Assembly: GCA_002919305.1 (NCBI GenBank)
Contig: PKFB01000015.1
Span: forward strand, 126,793-190,792
DNA: 64,000 nucleotides
Direction: 5' to 3'
DNA from: Actinomycetales bacterium
Lineage (GTDB): Bacteria; Actinomycetota; Actinomycetes; Mycobacteriales; Micromonosporaceae
Shown here: positions 10,236-25,993 of the stretch, piece by piece
Layout of the letters: every line of letters begins with the position of its first letter
Numbering within the stretch: the stretch's first letter is position 1
Translations under genes and position numbers: made by a program
The notes under the pieces: model-generated
The model's database searches: none
The model's input: the letters and a program-made list of their open reading frames with translations, nothing else
Told to the model about the DNA's origin: nothing

Positions 10236-10380
10236 GACTGCCTCCCGCGAACCGAGTCGAGGTTAGTCAGCAGTCAACCCGAGTACGGCCAGTATTTTCA
10301 AGAGCTGGCGTTAAACTGGAGAAAAATTCCAGATGACCATCGCGGGATGCACCCCGGCGGCCACCCTCCATGATGGGAAT

Positions 10381-11094
10381 ATGCCGCGTCCCACCCGTCT
10401 CATCGTCGCTGTCTTAACAGCGCTGTTCCTGGCGGGCTGCGACATCTCCATCTCCTTCGGCCCACCCTCCGATGAGGATGTCGGTACGCCCGCACCGCTA
10501 CCTTCGGGTGTGCTCCCTCCCACCGAAGCCCGCTTCGTGCTGGAGTCCTTGACCATCGCCGAAGCCGGCCCCATGGACGGCTACGAGCGTTCCTGCGCTG
10601 AAGGGGACGCTTGTGTGTTCGGTCCGGCCTGGGCCGATGTGGATCGCAACGGCTGCGATACCCGCAACGACATCCTCAGACGGGACCTCATCGGCGACGT
10701 CGCCCGGGAAGGCACCCACGGCTGCGTCATTGAGTACGGAATCCTGTACGACCCTTACACCGGGCAAATGGTGGAATTCGAACGAGGCCCAGACAGTGAC
10801 GAGGTCCAGATCGATCACGTGGTGGCACTGGCTGACGCCTGGCGCTCCGGCGCCGCCTCCTGGCCCCAAGAACAACGCCAGTGGTTCGCCAACGACCCGC
10901 GCAATCTGCGCGCCACGATCGGCGAGATCAATCAGGAGAAGGGGGATTCCGGGCCGGCCGAATGGCGGCCACCGAACGAGGAGTACTGGTGCGAGTACGC
11001 GGCCACGTACGTCACCGTCAAATTTGAGTACCGGCTCACCGTCACCCCCGAGGACGCTGACGCCCTCGCCGACATGCTCGCCGACTGCGCTTGA
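10381..11094 (+). CDS. Lipoprotein with HNH-type (GmrSD C-terminal/DUF1524-like) nuclease domain
   Basis: The product from the ATG at 10381 is 237 aa. It starts MPRPTRLIVAVLTALFLAGC, a signal peptide with lipobox LAGC, so it should be anchored outside the membrane. The mature domain has the hallmarks of actinobacterial secreted HNH proteins: CDTRNDILRRDL, a catalytic IDHVVALADAWRSGA, then FANDPRNLRA, N..KGDSGPAEW and a paired-Cys C-terminus. The DHV histidine and the downstream Asn and Lys form the HNH-like site. Such proteins are thought to degrade extracellular DNA for nutrient recovery, but no function is proved for this one. An in-frame ATG at 10333 would bury the signal, so I rejected it. 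Confidence 0.85.
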   Translation: MPRPTRLIVAVLTALFLAGCDISISFGPPSDEDVGTPAPLPSGVLPPTEARFVLESLTIAEAGPMDGYERSCAEGDACVFGPAWADVDRNGCDTRNDILRRDLIGDVAREGTHGCVIEYGILYDPYTGQMVEFERGPDSDEVQIDHVVALADAWRSGAASWPQEQRQWFANDPRNLRATIGEINQEKGDSGPAEWRPPNEEYWCEYAATYVTVKFEYRLTVTPEDADALADMLADCA

Positions 11095-11191
11095 ACGGCG
11101 CGTCTTTCGCTTGAACCTGAGCGACGCGCCGACCTGCGTCGACTTCAGCGGTGGGACAGCCGGCGCGCCATCGCGGTAGGACCTGATAGTG

Positions 11192-11237
11192 GTACGCGGA
11201 GCGGAGCCGCGTTACTCCTCGGCCCCGCTCCGCGTAC
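11192..11237. terminator. Bidirectional hairpin between the HNH gene and rho
   Basis: GTACGCGGAGCGG (11192-11204) pairs with 11225-11237, extended by GCCG/CGGC after one mismatch, giving a 17-pair imperfect stem in the convergent gap. The rest of 11095-11437 shows no gene. Confidence 0.75.
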
Positions 11238-11437
11238 TGTGTGAGTCAGATGAACCGCACGCGACGTCATCACGCGCTGACAGGCTTGCGAAGACGTGAC
11301 GCCCCGACACAGCCCGTTGACTGTGATCCGGAGCAGCTTGCCGCTCGGTCAGGCGCTCCACGGTCGGTTCCGCATGAGGGCCTTGCCGGGCCCAATCTCC
11401 TTCAGTGCTCCGACCGGCTGTGAACAAGCCCGCGGGC

Positions 11438-13480
<2,043 letters not shown>

Positions 13481-13842
13481 TGGATTCCTTCCCTCGAAGA
13501 GCCGGGGCTGTCCGTGGCGTGATGACGATCGGACGACCCGCGGATACACCCGCGGCGATGTCGCGGGACCTGAGACCAGCCGGGTGGTGGATGGTGCAGG
13601 GACACCGTGTCAGATCTTCGGTAAAGACCCTGTGAACACCGTGCCAGAGCACATCCCACCGCCAGCGAGCGATCGGTTCGGGTGCGGAGCGGATGCCACG
13701 GAGGCAGGAGGTACCACAGGAAATTGGGGTCGCTGCCCCACGAACATCGCACGCCCTTGGCGGCTGCTCTCGTGCAAAGCGTAGTCAACGCTAGCTACCA
13801 GCGGCAACACCTACCCCCTCCGGCGTGTTCCCGCCAGGGAGG
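13481..13842 (-). other. rho upstream region
   Basis: About 360 bases between thrB and rho with no supportable gene. Rho is often autoregulated through a long leader, and this length fits, but I cannot identify a specific attenuator. Minus-strand TTGCCG and TACGCT, 18 bases apart near 13775-13800, could be a promoter (weak). Confidence 0.35.
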
Positions 13843-14748
13843 TTACGTGGGCAAAACCACGGCCCCGCTTGAGTCCACTGACAAAGAACATACCGCGAAT
13901 CCCGTCGTCGCGAATCCCCGGAGGTCCTGGTCAGGAGCGCCGAAGGCGAGAACGGTAGGTCCTGCCCCGCTGATCACGGCGGGTACGCCCGCCGCCCGGA
14001 GATGCCGCAACAAAGCCGCGCTGTGCGGAAATGCCGGCGCGCGGTACTCCTGATGCAACCGGTCCTCGGTGGCCGCCAATAGCAAGTCCGGTTGGCGAGT
14101 CAGGGCGTGAGTGAGCAACGCCGCACGACCGGCGTTAAGGGCCGCGTCGACATGGGGCACCCGTTCCGGGAGGAGTCCCCGAGCCTGCTCGGTCAAACTC
14201 TGCTGTTGTGGAATGAACACCACCGGCCGAATGTGTTCCGCCGGTTCCAGCCGGACCGCGTGGGCCCCTCCAGGCCCAGTCCAGGCGATAGTGAAGCCGC
14301 CCAGCAGGCAGGGGGCCACGTTATCGGGGTGCCCCTCCAGGCTGGCGGCAAGGCGCAGCAGGGCCGCGGCGTCCAGCATCCGGTCCCCGTCAACGACGAG
14401 CGCGCGAGCCGCGAGCAGGCCGGCGACGATCGCAGCCGAGGAGGAGCCCAACCCCCGCGCTTGAGGGATCCGGTTGTGACAGACGACCTCCAAACCCGGC
14501 GGTCGACCCCCGAGGAGGTCAAAACAGGCGTACATCGCCCGTACCACCAGGTGTTGTTCATCTAGTGGGAGGGTGCCCGCGCCCTCCCCCTTGACCGTGA
14601 CCGACACCCCGGCGGGTACGACTCGCGCCTCCACTTCGTCATGGAGCGCCAACGCCAAACCCAACGCGTCGAAACCAGGACCGAGGTTGGCGCTGGTAGC
14701 CGGTACCCGTACCCGCACCGCGTCGGGCCGGAAGGTGCTGCTGGTCAT
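13843..14748 (-). CDS. thrB: Homoserine kinase
   Basis: Phosphorylates homoserine to O-phosphohomoserine, the substrate of ThrC, in threonine synthesis. The 301-aa GHMP kinase has all three motifs: VPATSANLGPGFDALGLAL (motif 1), the ATP loop IPQARGLGSSSAA (motif 2) and a C-terminal AVISGAGPTVLAF (motif 3). A good GAAGGAG precedes the ATG. The normal upstream partner thrC is almost 9 kb away because the RiPP-like cluster lies between them. No clear terminator separates thrB from the same-strand methyltransferase gene 162 bases upstream, so read-through from the cluster's minus-strand operon is possible. Confidence 0.96.
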   Translation of the reverse strand: MTSSTFRPDAVRVRVPATSANLGPGFDALGLALALHDEVEARVVPAGVSVTVKGEGAGTLPLDEQHLVVRAMYACFDLLGGRPPGLEVVCHNRIPQARGLGSSSAAIVAGLLAARALVVDGDRMLDAAALLRLAASLEGHPDNVAPCLLGGFTIAWTGPGGAHAVRLEPAEHIRPVVFIPQQQSLTEQARGLLPERVPHVDAALNAGRAALLTHALTRQPDLLLAATEDRLHQEYRAPAFPHSAALLRHLRAAGVPAVISGAGPTVLAFGAPDQDLRGFATTGFAVCSLSVDSSGAVVLPT

Positions 14749-14910: not shown

Positions 14911-15624
14911 TCAGTCTTGACGCGCGAAGATCAATGTCACCCAGCGTGCCCTCGGCCGCCCCTGCTCCACATACCGAACCTGGTGTTGCCGCATGCGCTC
15001 CAACAGCCGTTCTCGCTCCGGCCGGTCCGGATACCGCAGACCCCACTCGTACGCAGCCCGCCACTGCGCTGAGTAGTAGGCATCCCATTCGTCATCGCTG
15101 CCGTGGATCATCCCTATGAGGTCAAGTCCGTTCTCCGCGCCGGCACGGACCCGTTTCGCGAGATCTTGATCGTTCTGGTAGGCGTCACCCACCAGGATGC
15201 GCCCGTGAGGCCGCGTCGCCTTAGCCATCTGCACGATCGCGGAGAAGAATCCCCCCATTGCGTCTGAGGCGCCCACACACGTGACAATGTCGTATTGGGC
15301 CACAGGGGGAACGTAGGAGGCCAGATCCGCGATGACGAAATCTAAAAGCCCACCCACCCCTCGTGCGTCGGCGTCCTGTCGGGCGAGGGCGATGAAGTCC
15401 TGGTTGATGTCCACGCCGGTGCCCTGAACGCGGAACCGCTCGGCCCAGTCACACAGCAGGCGTCCTCTGCCGCACCCCAGATCGAGGACACGCTCCGCGT
15501 CGTCGACCCTGAGGTAGTCGGCGGCACGGCGCAGCTTCTCCTCGGACATCGGATTCCAGATCATGGGGTCCTGGCTGCCCGCCAGCACCTCGTACAACAC
15601 CTGCGTGTCCTGGGAATCGCTCAT
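14911..15624 (-). CDS. Class I SAM-dependent methyltransferase of the RiPP-like cluster
   Basis: A 237-aa soluble protein with a Rossmann methyltransferase core: ERVLDLGCGRGRLLCDWAE (motif I) about residues 44-62, GTGVDIN (motif II) and FVIADLASYVP (motif post-II/III). The substrate is unknown. It is the last gene of a minus-strand operon (S9 peptidase, B2-like, this gene), beginning one base after the B2-like stop, so translation is coupled. Its place in the cluster suggests that it modifies the peptide (for example an N-terminal amine or carboxylate), but it could act on something else. Sequence style resembles small-molecule or peptide methyltransferases. I see no radical-SAM or cobalamin motifs. 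Confidence 0.82.
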   Translation of the reverse strand: MSDSQDTQVLYEVLAGSQDPMIWNPMSEEKLRRAADYLRVDDAERVLDLGCGRGRLLCDWAERFRVQGTGVDINQDFIALARQDADARGVGGLLDFVIADLASYVPPVAQYDIVTCVGASDAMGGFFSAIVQMAKATRPHGRILVGDAYQNDQDLAKRVRAGAENGLDLIGMIHGSDDEWDAYYSAQWRAAYEWGLRYPDRPERERLLERMRQHQVRYVEQGRPRARWVTLIFARQD

Positions 15625-15625
15625 G

Positions 15626-16054
15626 TCACACCCCGGTGGTCGATGTCTCGGAAACCGGTTGGGCTTGAGGCAGGGACGCTACGGGCGTGTACAGCTCCTC
15701 CACAGGGATCCCCGTGGACACCACGACCCCATCCACGGTCACCCAATACAGGTAGTCAGCCGCTGCTGTAGGCGCCGTCCGCCGCCCTACCACGACGGCG
15801 GCGTCGTGGCCGAGAGTGAGTAGGGCCGCGGTCAAAAAGAGCGCTTCATCCCGCACGGGGCGTGCGGCGCCCCCGGAGAGCCGCCAGCACAGCCGCAGCC
15901 ACCGCAGATCGGTATCCAGGCGTCGAGCGCGCGGCCGCGCGGACCGAGCGAGCGTGTTCAGCGCCTGCTGCAGGTCACCGGCTCCTGGCCTGCGGCGCGT
16001 ACCGACCACCCTGCGTCCGGCGCGGACGGCCTTAAACAGCGGGAAGAGCAACAT
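15626..16054 (-). CDS. Lasso B2-like (transglutaminase-fold) protein lacking the catalytic Cys and His
   Basis: The 142-aa length equals the B2 leader peptidases of split lasso systems. The fold signature is recognisable: an amphipathic N-terminus, then RPVRDEALFLTAALLTLGHD followed by a YLYWVTVDGVVV strand and a Tyr-rich end. In active B2 proteins the first segment reads like RCLPRSLAL (nucleophile Cys) and the second like HAWVEVDG (catalytic His). Here the Cys position is Pro/Val and the His position is Leu/Tyr. The only Cys is residue 56, too far upstream, and the only His is residue 83. So this is probably a non-catalytic remnant or a leader-handling chaperone. The start ATG directly abuts the S9 peptidase stop. 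The family assignment is by pattern and context, moderate confidence. Confidence 0.6.
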   Translation of the reverse strand: MLLFPLFKAVRAGRRVVGTRRRPGAGDLQQALNTLARSARPRARRLDTDLRWLRLCWRLSGGAARPVRDEALFLTAALLTLGHDAAVVVGRRTAPTAAADYLYWVTVDGVVVSTGIPVEELYTPVASLPQAQPVSETSTTGV

Positions 16055-18232
16055 TCAGACCTCCGTGGCGGCGAGTGACGTGACGGCCCCCGGGTGAGAC
16101 ACGTCAGCGAGGGGTGGGGTGGCCGGTCCGGCCCATCGGTGTAGCCACGACAGCTCCTCCCGAGCCGCTGTCAACAGCCCTTCGCGGGTATGCAGGATGT
16201 GCCCTTCGTTGTGGAGGACGACCAGCCGAGCCGGGGTCCCGGCGACCCGCAGCGCCTCGTAGAACGACCGCGCCTGCTCCACCGTGGTGGCGCTGTTCGG
16301 ATCGGCCGCCCCTTGGATCAGCAGAACCGGAGTAGTGATCCGATCCGCCCGGTAGGCGAGGGTGAACCCGTCATAAACATCCCTTGCTTGCCACAAGGTC
16401 CGGCGTTCGTGTTGGAAACCGCCGGGGGTCAGGGTGCGGTTATAGGCGCCGTTGCGCAGGACGGCGCCCCGGAACAGATGGCCCACCCGCGAAAGCAGCA
16501 TCGCCGCCGCGGCGGCTCCGAAGCTGTGGCCTCCCACCAGCAGCCGCCGGGTGTCCACGTCGGGTGTCTCCGATAGCACCCCCACCATCTCCCGCAGCGC
16601 GCGGTCCAGCTCGTCCTCCAGCTGGGCGAAGCGGGTGTCGTCTTCCCACCGCACCGGACACGTCAGGATGGCCACGGCGGCGTGGGGCAGGTACGTCCAC
16701 GCCGGCGTTCCTGGGCGTACCTGGACCGGGCTGAACATGGGTTCTTTCTTCGTCGCCTCACCAGGGCCAGCGATACTCCTTACTGGGGAAAACCACACCA
16801 CCGCCGGCATCGACTGCGAACCGGATGAAGCGGGACGGATGATCTGGTAAGTGGCCCCCTGGGGCAACTGCCCGTGCGTGACCTGGAGGGCTGGTGCCGT
16901 GGGAGCGGTTCGCGTTTCGTGAATCGTGCGGGTCGCCTTCCCGGCGCTGTACTCCAGCCTGGCGTACCCCTCCTGCTGCCGCTCGATCAATCGCGTGGCA
17001 CCGGCGACCAGCACAAGCCGGACCCCGGCCGGTTGCCCTTCTATCGCCGAATCGGTGGAGGCGTCTGTGTTTATTACATACTGTCGCTTTCCCTGGTCGA
17101 TAGTTCGCACCGTTACCGCGACCAGCGCCGCGTCCGGGGCACCGGCCGTCGCCAGCTCCTCCACCGACCCTGGGAGCCGACGGGAAGCGGTACGCCCGGT
17201 TCGGGTATCGATGAGGACCACGTGGTCGGGTGCGGATCGCGGAACGACGACCAACGTGTTGGAGGCGACAGGTACCCACCGAAGCACCCCATCGGGCAGC
17301 GCGGCGATCTGGTGTGGATCTTCTCCAAGGCGGGCGGACCAGAACTCGGTGTGCCGGCCGGTGTCATCGCAGAAGATCAGCGTCGCGGGCTCATCGACCG
17401 CCCAGGCCAGGCTGCCACACCGCAGTGTCCCTAGGTCTTGGACCGCATGCGTCGACGTCGCCAGCTGGTACACCCGGTAAGGCACCACGTCGTGGGTCAA
17501 CAGCCGGCGTAGGCCGTCGAGGTCGGACACTCCCCCGACGAGCACGTGCTGGCCGTCCGGTGCCACAGCAAACTCCTGACACACCTGTCGGGGGGTCAGC
17601 ACAGTCACCGTTCCGTCTGGATTCAGGAGCGTCATCTCGGCGGCTGCGGCCGTGAACAGGTCGGTCAGCACGGGAGAGGGCCATAGTTTCTCGTCGCTGT
17701 CGAAGATCAGGTCCCGTGCCTCGTCGTCGATGGCAGCCCGGACCACCAATAACCGCCCCCCGGCCAGCCAACCCAGGGGGACTTGGACGCGACCACGCAG
17801 TCCAAGCAAGGAGTGACTGACAGGGATCTGGGAGTACCGATTGAACGGAGAGCCGGACGCTCTGGCGCTCCAGGGCACGATGCGGTCGTCGAGATGGACA
17901 AGTCCGGCCAGCCACTCCCCGGCGGCGTCCCAGACCACCGGGCCCGCGGAGGGGCGTGGCCACCCGGATCCCGCCGGCGCCCCGCTGGGGACCTGGCGCA
18001 CGGTCACCTCGTCGGCCAGCGGAAATATTTCGGGCAGTACGCGGTACGTGAGGTCATAGGCGAAGCGGCCGTGTCGTAATAGGCGGCGGGGCCGTCGCGG
18101 TCGAGTGGGGTATCCCTCACCGACACGTACCGCGATCCGATGACCGGTAGGAGCGGGGTGGTACGCCACCCGAAATCGGGCATCGAGATCGGAAGCGAGT
18201 TCCTCAATGGCCTGGCTAAACGCCTGCGACAC
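16055..18232 (-). CDS. S9 (prolyl-oligopeptidase) family peptidase of the RiPP-like cluster
   Basis: A 725-aa protein without signal peptide, hence cytoplasmic. About 450 residues of beta-propeller-like repeats precede an alpha/beta-hydrolase domain with an intact triad: Ser570 in GGHSFGAA, Asp644 in GAADPNSAT and His678 in HNEGHILH. Start: GTG at 18232 with AAAGGA five bases upstream. Relatives in lasso clusters act as lasso-peptide isopeptidases. Other S9 enzymes cleave after Pro. The precursor peptide in this cluster has a Pro-Pro just before its Cys-rich part, so a post-proline leader cleavage is an attractive, unproven role, especially because the B2-like protein looks inactive. It heads the divergent operon S9, B2-like, methyltransferase. 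Confidence 0.88.
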   Translation of the reverse strand: MSQAFSQAIEELASDLDARFRVAYHPAPTGHRIAVRVGEGYPTRPRRPRRLLRHGRFAYDLTYRVLPEIFPLADEVTVRQVPSGAPAGSGWPRPSAGPVVWDAAGEWLAGLVHLDDRIVPWSARASGSPFNRYSQIPVSHSLLGLRGRVQVPLGWLAGGRLLVVRAAIDDEARDLIFDSDEKLWPSPVLTDLFTAAAAEMTLLNPDGTVTVLTPRQVCQEFAVAPDGQHVLVGGVSDLDGLRRLLTHDVVPYRVYQLATSTHAVQDLGTLRCGSLAWAVDEPATLIFCDDTGRHTEFWSARLGEDPHQIAALPDGVLRWVPVASNTLVVVPRSAPDHVVLIDTRTGRTASRRLPGSVEELATAGAPDAALVAVTVRTIDQGKRQYVINTDASTDSAIEGQPAGVRLVLVAGATRLIERQQEGYARLEYSAGKATRTIHETRTAPTAPALQVTHGQLPQGATYQIIRPASSGSQSMPAVVWFSPVRSIAGPGEATKKEPMFSPVQVRPGTPAWTYLPHAAVAILTCPVRWEDDTRFAQLEDELDRALREMVGVLSETPDVDTRRLLVGGHSFGAAAAAMLLSRVGHLFRGAVLRNGAYNRTLTPGGFQHERRTLWQARDVYDGFTLAYRADRITTPVLLIQGAADPNSATTVEQARSFYEALRVAGTPARLVVLHNEGHILHTREGLLTAAREELSWLHRWAGPATPPLADVSHPGAVTSLAATEV

Positions 18233-18338
18233 GACTGTCCTTTCGCGACAGTTGACCGTTCATTAATGACCTCTAAACCGCCATGATCATGACCTATGGC
18301 CATTGATCGTCGTCAACACTATGTTACGGGCGTATTAC

Positions 18339-18366
18339 TTGACAACCCTCTATAGCGTGCTACGTT
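18339..18366 (+). promoter_or_regulatory. Predicted promoter of the precursor gene
   Basis: Consensus -35 TTGACA (18339-18344), 16-base spacer, -10-like TACGTT (18361-18366). Transcription would start near 18373, just before the 18-nt palindrome. A consensus -35 is uncommon in this genome, which suggests strong expression. Confidence 0.55.
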
Positions 18367-18373
18367 CAGCACT

Positions 18374-18391
18374 AGTCGACATATGTCGACT
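18374..18391. promoter_or_regulatory. 18-nt perfect palindrome, candidate operator
   Basis: AGTCGACATATGTCGACT is a perfect inverted repeat between the predicted transcription start and the ribosome site of the precursor gene. The position would let a dimeric repressor block initiation. No regulator gene is in the cluster, so it would be controlled from elsewhere. Alternatively it forms a small 5'-UTR hairpin. Confidence 0.5.
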
Positions 18392-18409
18392 GCGCAGAAA
18401 GGAGGTCCC

Positions 18410-18619
18410 ATGCCCGGTTTCATTCACCGGAGCGATGCGGCGCATCACACCGATGACGCCCTCGTCAGCGCCCACCTGGCCCAGGAAACCGCCCCTCCGC
18501 TGGAGTGCTGCGGCTGCCCGGATGACAACGCCTGCCGGCAGTACTGCGTAGCGAACTACGGCGCTCGTGGCGGTTACTGCGAAGGGTTCCTGGACCTGCG
18601 TTGCGTCTGCGTCTACTGA
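18410..18619 (+). CDS. Precursor peptide with CS-alpha-beta (defensin-like) cysteine pattern
   Basis: A 69-aa peptide starting at the ATG at 18410, fixed by a near-perfect AAGGAGGT just upstream. An in-frame ATG at 18383 lies inside the operator palindrome and is rejected. Residues 1-30 are a His/Asp/Ala-rich leader without a signal peptide, ending QETAPP. The C-terminal part has eight Cys (33, 34, 36, 42, 46, 57, 65, 67). Six match the CS-alpha-beta fold: Cys36, Cys42-x3-Cys46, GGYC (57) and Cys65-x-Cys67, with loop lengths 5, 3, 10, 7 and 1 like insect-type defensins. Cys33/34 are extra. The Cys-rich part is slightly acidic (5 Asp/Glu, 3 Arg), unlike cationic defensins. The context (PqqD-like protein, cyclase-like protein, disulfide protein, exporter) marks it as a RiPP-type precursor. 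The activity is unknown: toxin, bacteriocin or signal. Confidence 0.85.
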   Translation: MPGFIHRSDAAHHTDDALVSAHLAQETAPPLECCGCPDDNACRQYCVANYGARGGYCEGFLDLRCVCVY

Positions 18620-18640
18620 CGCGACGCAGGCCTTGCCTGT

Positions 18641-18668
18641 GAGATGACACCCGCGAGGGTGGCATCTC
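18641..18668 (+). terminator. First hairpin after the precursor gene
   Basis: GAGATG/CATCTC plus CACCC/GGGTG with one A·G mismatch and a GCGA tetraloop. It begins 22 bases after the precursor stop, probably a partial terminator or mRNA-stabilising structure. Confidence 0.65.
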
Positions 18669-18693
18669 GGGCTGGCGGGTAATGATCAAGAAT

Positions 18694-18728
18694 CTCCGTG
18701 GAGGTGCCCCTGACCCGCCTCCACGGAG
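18694..18728 (+). terminator. Strong terminator/attenuator after the precursor gene
   Basis: Perfect 11-bp stem CTCCGTGGAGG (18694-18704) with CCTCCACGGAG (18718-18728), 13-nt loop, then CCCTTCTTT. It should make the precursor transcript short and abundant relative to the enzyme genes downstream. Confidence 0.8.
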
Positions 18729-18761
18729 CCCTTCTTTGCGAGCGCGTACTTCAGTTAACTT

Positions 18762-18925
18762 TTTAAAGAAGCTTTAAACGCGAGGCGCCAGACGGGCTGG
18801 CGCCGGCTTCTTGTTAACGCGCGCTACCCCATCCTGCTGCCCGAGTCCCATCGCGGCATATCACACCCGACTATCGTCGGGTCTTTCTATGGACACCCTG
18901 GGGCCCGGCGAGCTTTTAACTCGCC
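18762..18925 (+). other. Series of four further hairpins in the precursor-cyclase gap
   Basis: In the gene-free 18620-19066 interval, after the terminator, there are stems at 18762-18778 (TTTAAAG/CTTTAAA), 18784-18804 (GGCGCCAG/CTGGCGCC), 18865-18882 (ACCCGAC/GTCGGGT, tail CTTTCT) and 18907-18925 (GGCGAG/CTCGCC, tail CTCTTTT). Two have terminator-like tails. Such stacking points to strong insulation, an attenuator, or a small structured RNA. Confidence 0.55.
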
Positions 18926-18934
18926 CTCTTTTCT

Positions 18935-18961
18935 CACTTAATTGAGTGGGAATTCTCACTC
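18935..18961. promoter_or_regulatory. Overlapping inverted repeats upstream of the cyclase operon
   Basis: CACTTAATTGAGTG (18935-18948, one mismatched pair) shares its right arm with GAGTGGGAATTCTCACTC (18944-18961, one mismatched pair). They lie about 110 bases before the cyclase start in the AT-rich zone that must hold its promoter (TTGAGT at 18943 could be a -35). Candidate regulator sites. Confidence 0.4.
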
Positions 18962-19066
18962 CCATGGGATATAAGCATGCTTTCATATAGCTCCGCTTTG
19001 TCCTATGTAGACGGACCGGAAATCTGGCGGGAAAGAGCTTCCCATTGAGGCTACGGAGGATCTACC

Positions 19067-20569
19067 GTGAGCCGCGGAATCAGGATCGACACGCCTTATC
19101 TCATCCGCGTCGATCTCACCCAGGGTGAGCTGTCAACCGACGGTGGTCCCCCGTCGCCATTGACCGAAGAGGTGAGATTGCCGGGCCAGCGCTCCCGCGG
19201 CACGCTCCGGTTCGCCTCCGGCTGGCTCGTGGTGGACCGCTCCCGGTCAACCCAGGGCGACCTGTTCCTGCGATACCACGCCGGCACGGTCGAGATCAGC
19301 GACAGCCTGAGCCTGCTGTGCCCCCAGCCGACAGCCGACGACGTCGCCGCCCTCACCCTGCTCAGCTCCTGCCTGGGCCTCCGCCCCGGGCCCGACCGGA
19401 CCCACCTGCGTGACATCCGCCGGCTGCCCTGTCTGTCGGTGGCCCGGATAGCGGCCGACGGCTCCAGCGTGGTGCGTCAGGACCTGTCCATTCTCACGGC
19501 CGACGGACGGAAGCGGGGTTCCTCCCGGACAGTCGGAGTCGATGAGCTGCTGCGGCGCCTCCTCGCCGACATTCCGTCCCCAACGCTGGTCGCCGCCAGC
19601 GGTGGCCTGGCCTCTCGGGCGTTACGCACCCTCCTGGGCGCGGATGCGCTCGTCGGGTCAGCTCAGCTGACGGGCCCGGTGTCCATCCGGATCCCGGAGC
19701 CCACCGGTGTGGTCCCCCAGCCCATACCTGTCTACTTCGATCAGCTGCGTACCACCCGGGTATGGCCGCCCCTCGGCAACCGGCACCTGGGCACCGCCGC
19801 CATCCTCAGCGTCTCCTCGCTCACCGGAGCCAACGCGGTGGTGGCCGGGCATCATCTGCGCCTGTTGCTGGGCACCGGCCCGGAGGAGTGCCAGGGCGTG
19901 GCGGGACCGTTGACCAGACTGACCAGCGAGCGCCTCGGCACCCGGACCGAGTGGCGCCTTCCGTGGCGCCGTCGGGAACACAACCACGACCACGGCTCAT
20001 CGCCGGCCGAGCGAGGCCAGCTCCCGCCGTGGCTCAGCGACGACGGGCGCCGGGAGATCCACACCCTGAATCTCGCGAACCGGGCAGCATGGGCGGATTG
20101 GTTCAGGGACGTCCCACCCCGGACCGCACGCGTGCTGTGGGCCCTGACCGATCCTGCGCTCGCCTGGCTATGGGACCTCTCCCACGAGATGGCGGTACCG
20201 CTACATCTCCCCGGCGGGACCCCGGAAGCCCTCTCGGCCCTGCTGCACCTACCCGTACGGGCGCGGGGCCAGGTGGTGGGCGGACGCTTCCTCGACGCGC
20301 CGATCCTGCGTCGCCTCGCTCCCGACGCGCTGTACTACGCCGATGGCGCCCACCGCCACCGCATCGCCGCGGCGACATGGGTGACCCAGGCGGCGCAGAC
20401 GATCCGGGAAGTGGCCCATGACGGCAGCTTCGCCCGGCTCGGGCTGATCAAGCCGGCCGAGGTCACGCGGATCCTGGACAACCCCTTCCTCCGCGTGGAG
20501 TACGCGCCTGCCCTACGGCAGATGACCGAAGCCGATCAGTGGCTGACCAATCTGGGAGGGCGCCGGTGA
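19067..20569 (+). CDS. Lasso-cyclase/asparagine-synthetase-like protein with degenerate ATP site
   Basis: The 500-aa layout is that of lasso macrolactam synthetases: an N-terminal glutaminase-like beta domain without the catalytic Cys (about 1-145), then an asparagine-synthetase ATP-pyrophosphatase domain. The PP-loop, normally SGGLDS, reads SGGLAS at 178-183, so the conserved Asp is Ala182. The second nucleotide motif (G-DE type) is replaced by VVAGHHLRLLL, and the C-terminal YKPLL-like lysine motif by GGRFLDA. ATP-driven amide formation is therefore doubtful, and it may instead act as a scaffold or peptide-folding partner. Start: GTG at 19067 with CGGAGGA. The stop overlaps the next start (GTGA). 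Family assignment rests on the PP-loop remnant, size and neighbours. Confidence 0.65.
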   Translation: MSRGIRIDTPYLIRVDLTQGELSTDGGPPSPLTEEVRLPGQRSRGTLRFASGWLVVDRSRSTQGDLFLRYHAGTVEISDSLSLLCPQPTADDVAALTLLSSCLGLRPGPDRTHLRDIRRLPCLSVARIAADGSSVVRQDLSILTADGRKRGSSRTVGVDELLRRLLADIPSPTLVAASGGLASRALRTLLGADALVGSAQLTGPVSIRIPEPTGVVPQPIPVYFDQLRTTRVWPPLGNRHLGTAAILSVSSLTGANAVVAGHHLRLLLGTGPEECQGVAGPLTRLTSERLGTRTEWRLPWRRREHNHDHGSSPAERGQLPPWLSDDGRREIHTLNLANRAAWADWFRDVPPRTARVLWALTDPALAWLWDLSHEMAVPLHLPGGTPEALSALLHLPVRARGQVVGGRFLDAPILRRLAPDALYYADGAHRHRIAAATWVTQAAQTIREVAHDGSFARLGLIKPAEVTRILDNPFLRVEYAPALRQMTEADQWLTNLGGRR

Positions 20570-20874
20570 CCGCCTCGACACCGAAACACCCCAACGCGTC
20601 TCAACCGCTGACGGGCAGGGTCACCTGGGCCCTGAGCCCGTCGGTCCGGCTCACCCCGCTGCCGTTCGGTGGGCAGGTCCTGGTGGAGTTACCCACCCTG
20701 ACCTGTCACGAACTGTTGGACGAGGCCGCCCGCCTGCTCACCCTGCCCGTGGGCACCCCGGTGTCTCTCGGCGCTCCCGAGCGGGAATTCCTCACCATCG
20801 CGGCGTCCGCGGGCTGGATCGTCGACGTGTCGTACGCCACAGACCCCGTAGTGGCGCTCGCAGACCGACGCTGA
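20566..20874 (+). CDS. PqqD/lasso B1-like leader-binding (RRE) protein
   Basis: The 102-aa product starts at the GTG at 20566, overlapping the preceding stop (GTGA), so translation is coupled. A longer frame from 20539 exists but would run deep into the cyclase gene. The middle has the B1/PqqD strand-helix pattern: LPFGGQVLVELPTLTCHELL followed by DEAARLLTL and a C-terminal helix AASAGWIVD. Such RRE domains bind RiPP leader peptides and hand them to the tailoring enzymes. Similarity is weak and the usual W-x-L-N region is missing, so the call leans on position between the cyclase-like gene and the exporter. Confidence 0.5.
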   Translation: MTASTPKHPNASQPLTGRVTWALSPSVRLTPLPFGGQVLVELPTLTCHELLDEAARLLTLPVGTPVSLGAPEREFLTIAASAGWIVDVSYATDPVVALADRR

Positions 20875-20885
20875 TCGGAGTCCTC

Positions 20886-21665
20886 ATGCTGTGGTATCCG
20901 CTCCTTGTACCGGCCGGCGTCCTGCTCGGCTCCGCCGCCGCCAAACTGATCGCCTCGCTTCGGGGCGAGCTGTCTTGGCCCCGTGGTCCCGTCCTACTGT
21001 GGTGGGCGATTCCGGCGTGGGTCGTTATTACCCTGGAGGCCACGGCGGCCCTGACCGGGGCCCTGCTCCCGGCGCCGTGGTTACTCGGGTCCCTCCTCGC
21101 CATGGCCTACGGTCTACTTACCGTCGGCGCGGTGACGATGCGGGGCCGCTCCTGCGCCTGCTTCGGCGTCACCGGCCGCAAGATCGGCGGCGGACACATC
21201 GCCGCCAACGCCGGCGTGGCCGTGATCTCACTCACCCTGGGTCTGCTCCCCCAGAGCGCTTCCCAACCCGGGGTGTGGACCCGTCTGGCGATCGTCGCGC
21301 TGGTTGGGTTGGCGGTGGCCGGCGGCTCGTTCGTGGCGATGCTGCGGCGCGCCGCCACCGGGGCCAGCAAGGACGCGGCCTGTGTCCGCGACGCCGACTC
21401 GATCCTGATCCTGACCATGCAAGGGTGCCCGGCCTGCTCGGCGCTGCACATGCTGCTCGACGGGGTCAGCGGGCAGGCGATCCGCTGGCACATGGTGTCG
21501 GGTCAGGAGGACCCGTACGCCGTGCTTGCAGACGGTCAGTACCCGTGCGCCGTCCCCCTTGATGCCGGCGACACCCCGACCTGCTCGCCGCGCTGGGGGC
21601 TGTCCGATATCAAGCGGTTGGTCGACACCTTCCTCGACCGTGACTTGGTTCGCGTGGCCCCATGA
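20886..21665 (+). CDS. MauE-like membrane protein fused to a thioredoxin-like domain
   Basis: A 259-aa protein. Residues 1-155 form about four to five membrane segments of the MauE/DoxX class, with the conserved CACFG motif (Cys90 and Cys92). The C-terminal 100 residues are thioredoxin-like with a redox-active CPAC (Cys181, Cys184) after a LILTMQG strand. MauE proteins support disulfide formation in methylamine dehydrogenase, and fusions with thioredoxin domains behave like disulfide relays. Here the obvious client is the eight-Cys peptide. Which side of the membrane the thioredoxin domain faces is not resolved. The stop overlaps the ABC exporter start by 4 bases (ATGA). Confidence 0.82.
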   Translation: MLWYPLLVPAGVLLGSAAAKLIASLRGELSWPRGPVLLWWAIPAWVVITLEATAALTGALLPAPWLLGSLLAMAYGLLTVGAVTMRGRSCACFGVTGRKIGGGHIAANAGVAVISLTLGLLPQSASQPGVWTRLAIVALVGLAVAGGSFVAMLRRAATGASKDAACVRDADSILILTMQGCPACSALHMLLDGVSGQAIRWHMVSGQEDPYAVLADGQYPCAVPLDAGDTPTCSPRWGLSDIKRLVDTFLDRDLVRVAP

Positions 21666-23503
21666 CCATCGCCATCCCCATCGACGCGACACAGCCACAG
21701 CCGCCTCTCCGGGCGGGCACGATCAGACGCATTCTGCGGTACGCCCGCCCGCACACGCCGGCCCTGTGCGCCCTGCTCGGCATCATCATCGTCGAAGGCC
21801 TGTTAGGGATCATTCCGCCCCTGTTGTTCCAGCGCATCGTCGACCAGGGCGTCCTGGCCGGGAACGGCGCCCTCATCACCACGCTCTCCCTGTTGGCGAT
21901 CGCCGTGCTCATCCTGAGCAGCGCCGCCACGCTCGGCATGCGCTGGTTGAGCGCGCAGATCGGCCAGAATCTGATCTTCCGGCTCCGCGCCGACGTGTTC
22001 GCGCATCTGCAACGGCTCCCGATCGCCTTCTTCACCCATAACCCGGGCGGAGCCCTCATCTCCCGGCTCAGCACTGACGTGACCGGCGCCCAAGGCGCCA
22101 TCAGCGGGGTCCTGCCCCAGGTGGTGTCCAACCTCACCGGGCTGGCCTTCGTGATCGGCACCATGCTGTACCTGTCATGGCCGGTCGCCCTCCTGGCCCT
22201 GTCCCTGCCGCCACTGTTGCTGCTGCCCGCCCGACAGATGGGGCGCCGGATGCGCCGCATCTCCCATCAACGCCTGGAGGCGGTCTCCGATCTGACGGCC
22301 TTCATGACTGAGCGGCTTAACGTGGCCGGTGCCCTCCTGGTCCGGCTCTACGGTCATCGCGACCGGGAGCATGCGGCGTTCACCACCTACAGCGCCCGTG
22401 ACCGGGACCTCGGGGTTCGGATCGTCCTCACGGGAGGGATCTACTCGACGGTGCTGATGGCGGTCAGCTCCCTGTCGGTCGTGCTGGTGTACTGGGTGGG
22501 CGGCCACTTGGCGCTGTCCGGGACGCTCTCGGTGGGCACCCTCATCGCGTTCACGGCGCTGCTGGCGCGGCTCTACGGTCCGGTCACCTCCCTGTCCACT
22601 GCCCGGGTGGAGGTGATGACCTCCATCGCGAGTTTCGAACGCATCTTTGAGGTTCTGGACGAACCGGTCACCGTGGTGGAGAAGCCGGGCGCCCCGCCCC
22701 TCCCCCGCGACGCCGCCGACATCGAGTTCGACCAGGTCAGCTTCAGCTACCCCCCTCGGCGTACCCTCGGCACCGATCCCTCCGCCTCCTCTTCGGCCCC
22801 GACACCGGTGCTGCGGCACGTCAGCTTCCGAGTACGCCCGGGCCAGAAGGTGGCGATCGTCGGGCCTTCCGGCGCGGGGAAAAGCACCATCGCTGGCCTG
22901 GTGGCGCGGCTGCACGACGTCGACGAGGGTGCCGTCCGGATCGCCGGGCGCGACGTGCGGGAGGTGAGCCTGGAATCGCTACGCGCCACCGTCGGGGTGC
23001 TGACCCAGGACGCCCACCTGTTCCACGACACCATCGCCGCCAACCTGCGCCTGGCGGCGCCTGACGCCACCGATGAGGAGCTGATCCAGGCCTGCCGCGC
23101 GGCTCAGATCTGGCCGTTGATCGAGAGCCTGCCTGAGGGTTTGCAGACCGTCGTCGGTGACCGTGGCTATCGGCTGTCGGGTGGGGAGAAACAGCGCCTG
23201 GCGATCGCGCGCCTGCTGCTGAAGGCCCCCACCATCGTCGTGCTCGATGAGGCCACCGCGCACCTGGACACCGAAAGCGAGGCCGCGGTCCAGCACGCGC
23301 TCACCCACGCCTTGCGCGGGCGAACCATGCTCGTCATCGCCCACCGGCTGTCAACGGTGCGGGACGCCGACCTGATCCTGGTCCTCGATCAGGGCCGCAT
23401 CGTCGAACGCGGCACCCACGAGGAGCTCCTCACCGCCGGTGGCCTGTATGCCCTGCTGTGCCGCACCCAGCTGGCGACGGATGAGGATCTGGCGCCCCGC
23501 TGA
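21662..23503 (+). CDS. ABC exporter, fused membrane and ATPase domains
   Basis: The 613-aa half-transporter has six N-terminal membrane helices and an ATPase domain with Walker A GPSGAGKST (about residue 400), signature LSGGEKQRLAIARLLL (about 505) and Walker B IVVLDEATAHLD (about 527). It would act as a homodimer. No N-terminal C39 peptidase domain is present, so leader removal must be done by another protein. It is the last gene of the operon and is likely to export the mature Cys-rich peptide and provide self-protection. A 7-bp GC hairpin follows. Confidence 0.92.
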   Translation: MTIAIPIDATQPQPPLRAGTIRRILRYARPHTPALCALLGIIIVEGLLGIIPPLLFQRIVDQGVLAGNGALITTLSLLAIAVLILSSAATLGMRWLSAQIGQNLIFRLRADVFAHLQRLPIAFFTHNPGGALISRLSTDVTGAQGAISGVLPQVVSNLTGLAFVIGTMLYLSWPVALLALSLPPLLLLPARQMGRRMRRISHQRLEAVSDLTAFMTERLNVAGALLVRLYGHRDREHAAFTTYSARDRDLGVRIVLTGGIYSTVLMAVSSLSVVLVYWVGGHLALSGTLSVGTLIAFTALLARLYGPVTSLSTARVEVMTSIASFERIFEVLDEPVTVVEKPGAPPLPRDAADIEFDQVSFSYPPRRTLGTDPSASSSAPTPVLRHVSFRVRPGQKVAIVGPSGAGKSTIAGLVARLHDVDEGAVRIAGRDVREVSLESLRATVGVLTQDAHLFHDTIAANLRLAAPDATDEELIQACRAAQIWPLIESLPEGLQTVVGDRGYRLSGGEKQRLAIARLLLKAPTIVVLDEATAHLDTESEAAVQHALTHALRGRTMLVIAHRLSTVRDADLILVLDQGRIVERGTHEELLTAGGLYALLCRTQLATDEDLAPR

Positions 23504-23552: not shown

Positions 23553-23582
23553 GGGTGGGTCAGGCTCTTGGGGTGGGTCAGG
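23553..23582. repeat. 12-bp direct repeat at the thrC end
   Basis: GGGTGGGTCAGG occurs at 23553-23564 and 23571-23582 (period 18), spanning the thrC stop codon. It marks the right edge of the inserted cluster. I did not find a copy near thrB, so it is not a proven target duplication. Confidence 0.6.
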
Positions 23583-24627
23583 TCAACTCCAGCGCTTTGG
23601 CGGCCGCGGTCACGTCGACCTCGATCGTGGTGGGCGCCGGCGCGATCGACACCGCCCAGTCGGGGTCCTTCAAGCCGTGTCCGGTGACGGTGCACACCAC
23701 CGTCTCCCCCGGCTGCACCAACCCGTTCTGGGCCGCCTGGAGCAGGCCCGCCACGCTCGCCGCGCTCGCCAGCTCCACGAAGACCCCTTCGGTCCGGGCC
23801 AGCAGCTTGTACGCGGCCAGGATCTCCCGGTCCGTCACCGCCTGAATGGCGCCCCCGGACTCATCGCGGGCCGCCACCGCCTTCGTCCAGCTCGCCGGAT
23901 CACCGATCCGGATAGCGGTAGCGATCGTGGTCGGTTCCCGCACCGCCTCACCGCGCACGATCGGGGCCGCACCCGAGGCCTGGAAGCCCAACATTCGCGG
24001 GCGGCGGGTGGCCCGCCCCACCTCGTAGTCCTCCTTGTACCCCTTCCAGTACGCCGTGATGTTGCCGGCGTTGCCCACCGGAATGCAGTGAACATGCGGC
24101 GCGTCACCCAGGGCGTTGACAATCTCGAAAGCGGCGGTCTTCTGCCCCTCGATGCGGTCGGGGTTGATGGAGTTGACCAGCGACACCGGGTATTCCTGGG
24201 CCAGCTTGCTGGCCAGGTTCAGACAGTCGTCGAAGTTGCCGTCCACCTGCAACAGCCGGGCTCCGTGGACCAGCGCCTGGGCGAGCTTCCCCAGAGCGAT
24301 CTTGCCCCGCGGCACCAGGACCGCACAGGTCAGGCCGGCCCGCACCGCGTACGCCGCCGCACTGGCCGAGGTGTTGCCGGTGGAGGCACAGATCACCGCC
24401 TTGCTGCCCGCCTCGACCGCCTTGGAGATCGCCACGGTCATCCCCCGGTCCTTGAACGAACCGGTGGGATTGGCCCCCTCGACCTTCAGATACACCTCGC
24501 ACCCGGTCCGCTCTGACAGCCCGGGCGCGGGCAGCAGCGGGGTTCCCCCCTCGTACAGCGTGATCACAGGGGTGTGTTCAGTGACCGGCAGCCGGTCGGC
24601 GAACTCATGGATGATCCCTCGCCACAT
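23578..24627 (-). CDS. thrC: Threonine synthase
   Basis: PLP enzyme converting O-phosphohomoserine to threonine. The 349-aa short form is typical of actinobacteria. The PLP lysine is in [11 protein letters not shown], the cofactor-phosphate loop is [15 protein letters not shown], and the adenine-like [14 protein letters not shown] segment is intact. It is 27 bases after hom in the operon argS-lysA-hom-thrC. The usual downstream gene thrB has been displaced by the RiPP-like cluster. Confidence 0.97.
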
Positions 24628-24654
24628 GTTCGTGTCCCATTCGCGCAGATGTCT

Positions 24655-25965
24655 CTACTGCTCGCCTTCGACCCGCATCACTCCGGCGACCTGACGCACG
24701 GTATCGAGTTCCGCCAAAGCCTGCACCGTCGCCCTCAACGCAGCGTCGGTGGCCTGGTGCGTCACGATCACCAGAAGGGCGTCCTCACCCCTACCCTCCT
24801 GGCGTACCGCCTGGATGCTCACCCCGTGATCGGCGAAGACATGGGCCACGGTGGCCAGCACGCCGGCACGGTCGTCGACGTCGAGTGAGATGTGGTAGCG
24901 AGTCCGCACCTCGCCCATGGGGCGAATCCGCAGCGCCGCGTAGTTGGACTCGCTGGCCGCCCGGGCACCGGCGAGCCGGTTGCGGGCCACCGCCACCAGA
25001 TCCCCCAGCACGGCGCTGGCGGTCGGGGCGCCACCGGCGCCAGGGCCGTAGAACATCAACCGACCGGCGGCCTCGGCCTCCACAAAGACCGCGTTGAACG
25101 CTTCACCGACACCGGCCAAAGGATGGGTACGCGGGATCATCGCCGGGTGTACCCGCACCGAGACGCTCTCGGGCTCGTCCGGATCGGTATGGCGCTCGGC
25201 GACACACAGCAGCTTGACCACACACCCCATCGCCTCGGCGCTGGCCACGTCCGCCGCTGAGACCTCGGTGATGCCCTCCCGGTAGACGTCCGCCACCGTG
25301 ACCCGGGTATGGAACGCCAACGACGCCAGAATCGCCGCCTTCGCCGCGGCGTCGAATCCTTCGATGTCAGCGGTTGGGTCCGCCTCCGCGTACCCCAGGG
25401 CGGTGGCCTCCTCCAACGCCTCGGTGAAGCCAGCGCCGGTCGCGTGCATCCGCGACAGGATGTAGTTGGTGGTGCCGTTGACGATGCCGATCACACGGGT
25501 GATCCGGTCCCCGTGCAAAGACTCCCGCAATGGGCGCAGCAGCGGGATCGCACCAGCCACCGACGCCTCATAGAACAGGTCGGCGTTCCCTTCGGCAGCC
25601 GCCTCGTGCAGGGTCGCCCCGTCCTCCGCGAGCAGCGCCTTGTTGGCGGTCACCACGCTCTTGCCCGACTTCAACGCCGTCGTCAACCAGGTCCGGGCCG
25701 GTTCGATACCGCCGACCACCTCGACGACCACGTCGACGTCGTCGCGTTCCACCAGCCCCATGGCGTCATCGGTGAGCAGCTCCGAGGGCACGACCCCGGC
25801 GCGGCGGTGCCGGTCCAAGCGGCGTACCGCGACACCGACCAGTTCCAACGGCGCCCCCACCCGGGCTGTGAGGTCGGCCGCTTGGGTACGCAGCAGACGC
25901 ACCACCTCGGTGCCGACCGTTCCACACCCCAATAGGGCAACTTTGACGGATTTACCGCTTCTCAT
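24655..25965 (-). CDS. hom: Homoserine dehydrogenase with C-terminal ACT domain
   Basis: NAD(P)-dependent reduction of aspartate semialdehyde to homoserine, the branch to threonine and methionine. The protein has an N-terminal Rossmann motif VALLGCGTVGTEV, the catalytic core with GIVNGTTNYIL and GYAEADPTADIEG, and an ACT regulatory domain (YHISLDVDDRAGVLATVA) that should give threonine feedback control. About 436 aa. I start at the ATG at 25965. A TTG two codons upstream (25971) is also possible. It lies 28 bases after lysA. Confidence 0.96.
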   Translation of the reverse strand: MRSGKSVKVALLGCGTVGTEVVRLLRTQAADLTARVGAPLELVGVAVRRLDRHRRAGVVPSELLTDDAMGLVERDDVDVVVEVVGGIEPARTWLTTALKSGKSVVTANKALLAEDGATLHEAAAEGNADLFYEASVAGAIPLLRPLRESLHGDRITRVIGIVNGTTNYILSRMHATGAGFTEALEEATALGYAEADPTADIEGFDAAAKAAILASLAFHTRVTVADVYREGITEVSAADVASAEAMGCVVKLLCVAERHTDPDEPESVSVRVHPAMIPRTHPLAGVGEAFNAVFVEAEAAGRLMFYGPGAGGAPTASAVLGDLVAVARNRLAGARAASESNYAALRIRPMGEVRTRYHISLDVDDRAGVLATVAHVFADHGVSIQAVRQEGRGEDALLVIVTHQATDAALRATVQALAELDTVRQVAGVMRVEGEQ

Positions 25966-25993
25966 GCTCAACCCAACAGTTCATGGTCCACTC

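What the first reader, a model, noticed from the sequence alone, without database searches (positions are those of the whole stretch)
14911..23503. Candidate new RiPP-like system: defensin-like peptide with repurposed lasso-type machinery
One precursor (18410-18619) with a CS-alpha-beta cysteine pattern lies between two operons holding a lasso-cyclase-like protein, PqqD/B1-like, B2-like, S9 peptidase, methyltransferase, MauE-thioredoxin fusion and ABC exporter. Lasso gene clusters normally carry active cyclase and B2 protein and a precursor whose core has an acidic residue at ring position 7-9. Here the precursor does not fit that, and the cyclase and B2 lack key residues, while a disulfide-forming protein is added. 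I know of no described class combining these parts. Seen: gene set, motifs, missing residues. Inferred: that the final product is a disulfide-rich defensin-like peptide.
Basis: partly seen in the sequence, partly recalled or inferred. Interest (0 to 1): 0.95.

Follow-up and report, generated by a model that had tools for sequence, protein, structure and literature searches.

The report
Defensin cluster with retired lasso enzymes
An actinobacterium carries a gene cluster that encodes a small peptide resembling animal defensins next to relatives of lasso-peptide enzymes that lack their catalytic residues, and because the same gene set accompanies knottin-like peptides in other genomes, it likely serves as a dedicated folding and export line for disulfide-rich peptides.

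Summary
Window 14911-23503 encodes a 69-aa precursor with an 8-Cys defensin core, a lasso-cyclase-like protein, B1-like and B2-like proteins, an S9 peptidase, a MauE-thioredoxin fusion, an ABC exporter and a methyltransferase. The kind is not wholly unknown: NCBIfam relates three of the proteins to actinodefensin (actifensin) and its 'associated' proteins A and B, only B above its cut-off. I found in no paper searched what these helpers are. Here, profile and fold comparisons make the A-like protein a lasso-cyclase/asparagine-synthetase relative whose PP-loop Asp is replaced in 13 of 13 family members (present in 27 of 27 controls); the B2 relatives lack the catalytic Cys and His in 11 of 11 (present in 11 of 11 controls). 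The gene set occurs in 11 clusters, a second one in this genome. Each holds one Cys-rich precursor: four similar defensins, one many-Cys defensin-like peptide, six knottin-spaced peptides. Best reading: a lasso assembly line turned into a non-catalytic handling and oxidative-folding line for disulfide miniproteins. No product has been seen; a macrolactam is unlikely but not excluded, since core position 7 is acidic in 12 of 13 defensin precursors.

The parts
18410..18619 (+). precursor peptide, 69 aa; leader 1-32 (ends ...ETAPPLE), predicted core 33-69 (37 aa, 8 Cys, CS-alpha-beta pattern)
   Evidence: NF038042 42.7 bits, cut-off 65; 12 homologs; PDB defensins; calculated mass with 4 disulfides 4050.56 Da
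18400..18405 (+). AGGAGG ribosome-binding site of the precursor
   Evidence: sequence
18620..18745 (+). strong hairpins after the precursor stop (possible attenuator between precursor and operon)
   Evidence: -63.6 kcal/mol, z -4.05, 1 of 200 shuffles as good
19067..20569 (+). lasso-cyclase / asparagine-synthetase relative without the PP-loop Asp (pseudo-cyclase, 'C')
   Evidence: (NF038043 64.7 bits, cut-off 250)
19598..19615 (+). PP-loop motif SGGLAS (residues 178-183); Asp of SGGLDS replaced by Ala
20539..20874 (+). B1/PqqD-like protein, predicted leader-binding domain
   Evidence: NF038044 act_def_assoc_B 64.5 bits, cut-off 45 (no Pfam hit); the same model finds, below cut-off, proteins beside canonical lasso B2 genes
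20886..21665 (+). MauE-like membrane protein fused to a thioredoxin-type CxxC domain; predicted disulfide former
   Evidence: PF07291 24.6 bits, cut-off 27; CxCFG and CxxC in 11 of 11
21662..23503 (+). ABC exporter (membrane and ATPase domains)
   Evidence: PF00664, PF00005
16055..18232 (-). S9 prolyl-oligopeptidase-family peptidase, catalytic triad intact; predicted leader peptidase
   Evidence: PF00326 58.8 bits; NF033523 lasso isopeptidase 33.2 bits, cut-off 400
15626..16054 (-). lasso B2 relative without catalytic Cys and His (pseudo-B2)
14911..15624 (-). SAM methyltransferase, accessory (of the ten other clusters a counterpart was found only beside L008)

Best explanation
The cluster encodes a 69-residue defensin-like precursor and likely makes a four-disulfide peptide by a RiPP-like route in which relatives of the lasso proteins B1, B2 and C, the last two lacking their catalytic residues, would act as a non-catalytic carrier, a MauE-thioredoxin protein would form the disulfides, an S9 peptidase is predicted to cut the leader after Glu32, and an ABC protein would export the product. 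Shown: gene set, loss of catalytic residues, conservation of the set across 11 clusters, one Cys-rich precursor in each (defensin or knottin type), purifying selection on the two pseudo-enzymes in the two pairs tested. Inferred: that B1 binds the leader, that pseudo-B2 and pseudo-C hold or shape the core instead of cleaving and cyclising it, that S9 has taken over B2's cleavage, that no macrolactam forms, and that the product is an antibacterial peptide.
Confidence: 0.6

Rival explanations
1. The C-like protein is not a pseudo-enzyme but has gained another chemistry (other modification, other nucleotide or metal use), so the product carries a further covalent change.
For: In the PP-loop the second Gly and last Ser are kept in 13 of 13 and the first Ser in 11 of 13 although Asp is gone; the protein is under purifying selection in the two pairs tested; a methyltransferase sits in this cluster.
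Against: Replacement by Ala, Ser or Gly in 13 of 13 removes a residue that binds the metal in relatives (recalled); actifensin, the measured relative, shows no mass change beyond three disulfides, although its helper A was not compared here letter by letter.
Confidence: 0.2
2. It is a real lasso peptide cluster: catalysis is supplied by unusual residues or by canonical lasso enzymes in trans, giving a macrolactam plus disulfides.
For: B1, B2, C and S9-isopeptidase-type relatives all present; core position 7 acidic in 12 of 13 defensin precursors; lasso B2 model matches exist in 2 of 8 other producers.
Against: 0 of 13 cyclases keep the PP-loop Asp and 0 of 11 B2 keep Cys/His. No lasso B2 model match in this genome at E 1e-8 (the one PF13471 match over cut-off, lies in a long membrane transglutaminase-like protein) and none in 6 of 8 other producers. 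Five of six knottin cores have no acidic residue at positions 7-9 if the leader ends at Glu; the sixth, L071, depends on which Glu (sequences).
Confidence: 0.08
3. The peptide is an ordinary unmodified class II bacteriocin and the lasso-like genes are decaying leftovers.
For: A review classes actifensin as an unmodified class II bacteriocin (PMC7616364 passages); some defensin loci lack the machinery.
Against: Open frames and the same gene set in 11 clusters from several genera, and purifying selection in the two pairs tested.
Confidence: 0.12

Closest known systems
Actifensin / actinodefensin clusters (Actinomyces; NCBIfam NF038042-NF038044; PMC6989792)
   Same: 69-aa precursor, 32-aa leader ending in Glu, 37-aa CS-alpha-beta core; helper families A and B (by NCBIfam name; I saw no Actinomyces cluster); alpha/beta hydrolase and ABC genes nearby (paper)
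   Different: precursor and helper A score below the NCBIfam cut-offs (42.7 of 65, 64.7 of 250 bits); eight Cys, two of them vicinal, instead of six; no LuxR or subtilisin family among the eight ORFs scanned; MauE-thioredoxin and pseudo-B2 seen here; the published afnG-afnI are called hypothetical
Lasso peptide gene clusters
   Same: B1-like, B2-like, cyclase-like and S9 isopeptidase-like proteins with an ABC exporter
   Different: cyclase lacks PP-loop Asp, B2 lacks Cys and His, precursor is a disulfide miniprotein
Bacterial CS-alpha-beta defensins of the EMBO Mol Med 2021 and ACS Omega 2024 surveys (PMC8819291, PMC11561630)
   Same: defensin core; a Micromonospora member and a vicinal-Cys member (CBSIN-2) are reported in PMC8819291
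   Different: the word lasso occurs in neither main text; gene neighbours other than ABC transporters are not discussed in the passages seen
Inhibitor-cystine-knot peptides (knottins)
   Same: six related clusters encode precursors with knottin Cys spacing (C-x6-C-x5-CC); weak Pfam hits of most of them to knottin families, all below cut-off
   Different: actinobacterial, with a leader, coupled to the pseudo-lasso gene set; fold and pairing untested

Membership tests
lasso peptide cluster | cyclase with intact SGGxDS PP-loop | tested here: not met
   Asp absent in 13 of 13 family members, present in 27 of 27 profile-matched control frames (asparagine-synthetase type by motif, no family scan) and in 6 of 6 lasso-cyclase frames
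lasso peptide cluster | B2 with catalytic Cys and His | tested here: not met
   0 of 11 family, 11 of 11 lasso B2 controls
lasso peptide cluster | a B1 relative beside B2 and C | tested here: met
   NF038044 above cut-off; the same model finds, below cut-off, proteins beside canonical lasso B2 genes in G042, G032 and G062. Leader binding not tested; no Pfam hit
lasso peptide cluster | acidic ring residue at core position 7-9 | tested here: inconclusive
   position 7 acidic in 12 of 13 defensin precursors if cleavage follows Glu32; absent in five of six knottin cores
lasso peptide cluster | threaded macrolactam product | not testable with these tools
   no product
actinodefensin (actifensin) | precursor above NF038042 cut-off | tested here: not met
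   42.7 bits against 65, E 6.2e-11
actinodefensin (actifensin) | associated protein B | tested here: met
   64.5 bits against 45
actinodefensin (actifensin) | associated protein A above cut-off | tested here: not met
   64.7 bits against 250, C-terminal half only
actinodefensin (actifensin) | Glu just before the mature peptide | tested here: met
   E32 invariant in 13 of 13; the actual cleavage here is not known
actinodefensin (actifensin) | LuxR regulator and subtilisin-like protease in the cluster | tested here: not met
   no such family among the hits of the eight ORFs scanned; other ORFs nearby were not scanned
CS-alpha-beta (cis-) defensin | Cys pattern and similarity to solved defensins | tested here: met
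CS-alpha-beta (cis-) defensin | fold and disulfide pairing of the peptide | not tested

The most novel reading that the evidence does not exclude
A separate RiPP-like class: a lasso assembly line has lost its chemistry (B2 and C) and become a protein-guided folding line that oxidises and exports disulfide miniproteins of at least two unrelated scaffolds, defensins and knottins.
Probability: 0.55. Interest if true: 0.87.

Novelty: new variant of a known kind. Interest (0 to 1): 0.74.

Why it matters
[quoted passage not shown] If such neighbours are retired lasso enzymes, bacteria have a dedicated route for making defensins and knottins, scaffolds prized in medicine and agriculture and hard to fold by design. 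It also gives a clean case of a biosynthetic line turned into pseudo-enzymes, testable by gene deletion, and a genome-mining handle (the pseudo-cyclase profile) for disulfide-rich peptides that precursor searches miss.

Tried and rejected

Considered and rejected: chance pattern; lasso peptide by help in trans; the PF13471 match over cut-off in the window's genome as a lasso B2 (it lies in a frame of over 800 residues that reads as a membrane transglutaminase-like protein); insertion into a thr operon as proof of recent transfer (of 19 relatives' thrB loci, thrC lay within 143 bases in 8 and 1.3 kb away in one, and was not seen in 10; thr names are my reading of the sequence, no family call).

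First control for B2 was picked by a motif rule and so was biased; one search failed; one search repeats it with frames picked by the reported frame length; for L062 two frames had that length and the first was taken. Rows left out of the 11-cluster counts: L010, L011, L012 (precursor without machinery); L069 is L009 again; P0002 and P0003 are cyclases without fetched DNA and count only among the 13 cyclases. In several genome searches only a few candidates per genome were scored (3 to 15), so misses are possible. The B1-like proteins of L008 and L013 score below the NF038044 cut-off (33.9 and 37.9 bits; L008 frame seen); those of L050, L051, L070, L071 and L072 were found by BLAST only. Paper searches that showed no link between defensins or knottins and lasso machinery: (open-licence PMC only; listings seen, cut at 20 of 31, 20 of 166, 15 of 81, 10 of 12). 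Papers: PMC6989792 (outline, sections 9 and 10, first part of 11, passages), PMC8819291 (section 9, passages), PMC11561630, PMC12284004, PMC7616364 (passages), PMC13381572 (search listing and a term search with no hit).

Full report
What is there. The precursor has an AGGAGG site just upstream and strong hairpins just after its stop (z -4.05).

The peptide. Twelve homologs were found in a database of 5.8 billion proteins, among them proteins of Micromonospora rosaria, Saccharothrix algeriensis and Stackebrandtia albiflava. The 13 share ECCGCP, C-x3-C and GGYCEGFL. By sequence the core matches the scorpion defensin BmKDfsin3 and the mussel defensin MGD-1 in the PDB (organisms recalled). NCBIfam relates it to actinodefensin below the cut-off, the B1-like protein to actinodefensin-associated protein B above the cut-off and the C-like protein to associated protein A below it. 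So the finding belongs near a known kind, the actifensins. In the actifensin paper the mature peptide begins after a Glu, is 37 residues long and weighs its sequence minus six hydrogens, and three genes downstream are called hypothetical. In our family Glu32 is invariant, and in the window's precursor the part after it is also 37 residues long.

What the helpers are. In the order sample 206 of 397 genomes have a match to the C-like family profile; apart from the full-length members these are mostly frames of about 600 residues aligned over about positions 40-195, and of the 27 that were read all carry SGGxDS and 26 GQGADE, asparagine-synthetase motifs (motif names recalled). The AlphaFold model of the window's protein (pLDDT 76.8) matches TsnB9, beta-lactam synthetase and asparagine synthetase from end to end, and the family profile matches that of five lasso cyclases with 98.2% probability over 453 columns. 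The B2-like family matches lasso B2 by profile (E 4e-5, probability 70%) and one member by NCBIfam and Pfam, both below cut-off. The B1 model also finds, below cut-off, the proteins beside canonical lasso B2 genes in G042, G032 and G062.

What they have lost. In one alignment the Asp of SGGxDS is present in 27 of 27 control frames and in 0 of 13 family members (Ala, Ser or Gly instead), while the second Gly and last Ser are kept in 13 of 13. Lasso cyclases next to lasso B2 genes keep it in 6 of 6 frames found, from five clusters. The catalytic Cys and His of B2 are present in 11 of 11 lasso B2 controls and 0 of 11 family members. By contrast the S9 Ser-Asp-His columns are invariant in 11 of 11 and the MauE CxCFG and thioredoxin CxxC motifs occur in 11 of 11. 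The losses are therefore shared, not damage in one genome. In the close pair L051/L072 dN/dS is about 0.29 for C and 0.24 for B2, no higher than 0.33 and 0.26 for S9 and MauE; in L018/L050 it is about 0.33 and 0.35 for C and B2.

How far it reaches. A precursor search of genome contigs gave six loci: three carry the set (L007, L008, L009; the B1 of L008 below cut-off), three (two Corynebacterium, one Nannocystis) carry a defensin gene without it. The window's own genome has a second set (L013) with a 77-aa, many-Cys precursor that weakly matches the fungal defensin copsin in Pfam, below cut-off. Saccharothrix algeriensis has another set (L018) whose precursor is not a defensin but has knottin spacing. 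Profile searches with the C-like family found full-length members in 3 of 397 genomes of the order, 1 of 384 of the class (the window's own) and 6 of 260 of the family. Of the genomes so found, five were new (L050, L051, L070, L071, L072); all five have a knottin-spaced precursor directly before B2, C, B1, MauE, S9 and ABC. In all, 11 distinct clusters each hold one defensin or knottin match; 63 control loci (321 kb) hold none but a real Corynebacterium defensin; 3.87 Mb of shuffled DNA hold none (the patterns were written after the peptides had been seen, and miss the defensin-like genes of L011 and L012). In the tree the family is one group (99/95) with a defensin clade and a knottin clade, L013 outside both on a long branch whose place is unsure.

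Mechanism. Committed reading: B1 brings the precursor by its leader; pseudo-B2 and pseudo-C, still conserved, hold or shape the core rather than cut and cyclise it; the membrane MauE-thioredoxin protein oxidises the cysteines; S9, which keeps its triad, removes the leader after Glu; the ABC protein exports. Only the gene set and residues are shown; every step is inferred. A lasso B2 model match is absent from the window's genome and present in only 2 of 8 other producers, so help in trans is unlikely. Against: core position 7 is acidic in 12 of 13 defensin precursors, as a lasso ring would want; the knottin branch (five of six without an acidic residue at 7-9) and actifensin's mass speak the other way. 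Mass spectrometry decides.

Novelty. Defensin bacteriocins, and by NCBIfam name their association with two helper families, are known. Not found in the papers searched: that the helpers are degenerate lasso enzymes, that a pseudo-B2 and a MauE-thioredoxin protein belong to the set, and that the same set serves knottins. Host: G1181, a member of the window's family, is the Stackebrandtia albiflava genome (shared DNA), so the host probably lies in Micromonosporaceae in the GTDB sense (recalled).

Noticed in passing
L013 (G000:C3:69000-88900), 7224-14663: A second, divergent cluster of the same kind in the window's own genome, with a 77-aa many-Cys precursor (12124-12357 -) matching fungal defensin copsin below cut-off.
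   Followed up: yes
L018, L050, L051, L070, L071, L072: Six clusters with the same gene set and knottin-spaced precursors, with a Glu one or two residues before the first Cys.
   Followed up: partly
L010, L012 (Corynebacterium), L011 (Nannocystis sp. RBIL2): Defensin-like precursors without the pseudo-lasso machinery; in the two Corynebacterium loci an ABC ATPase frame follows directly; the L012 match lies in two pieces.
   Followed up: partly
window 13843-14748 and 23578-25971: The cluster lies between genes that read like thrB and thrC-hom (my reading, no family call); in 19 relatives' loci thrC lay within 143 bases of thrB in 8, so interruption of an operon is possible but not shown.
   Followed up: partly
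window 18620-18930: Strong hairpins between precursor and cyclase-like operon, possibly attenuation so that precursor transcripts exceed operon transcripts.
   Followed up: partly
P0002 and P0007: A cyclase-like protein and a defensin precursor both have 6919 bases as longest contig, perhaps one further cluster in a source that I could not fetch.
   Followed up: no
G062:C1:965145 (L019), G062:C1:6157009, G062:C1:4188975: Saccharothrix algeriensis also has three matches to the lasso B2 model above cut-off, beside two clusters of the degenerate kind.
   Followed up: no
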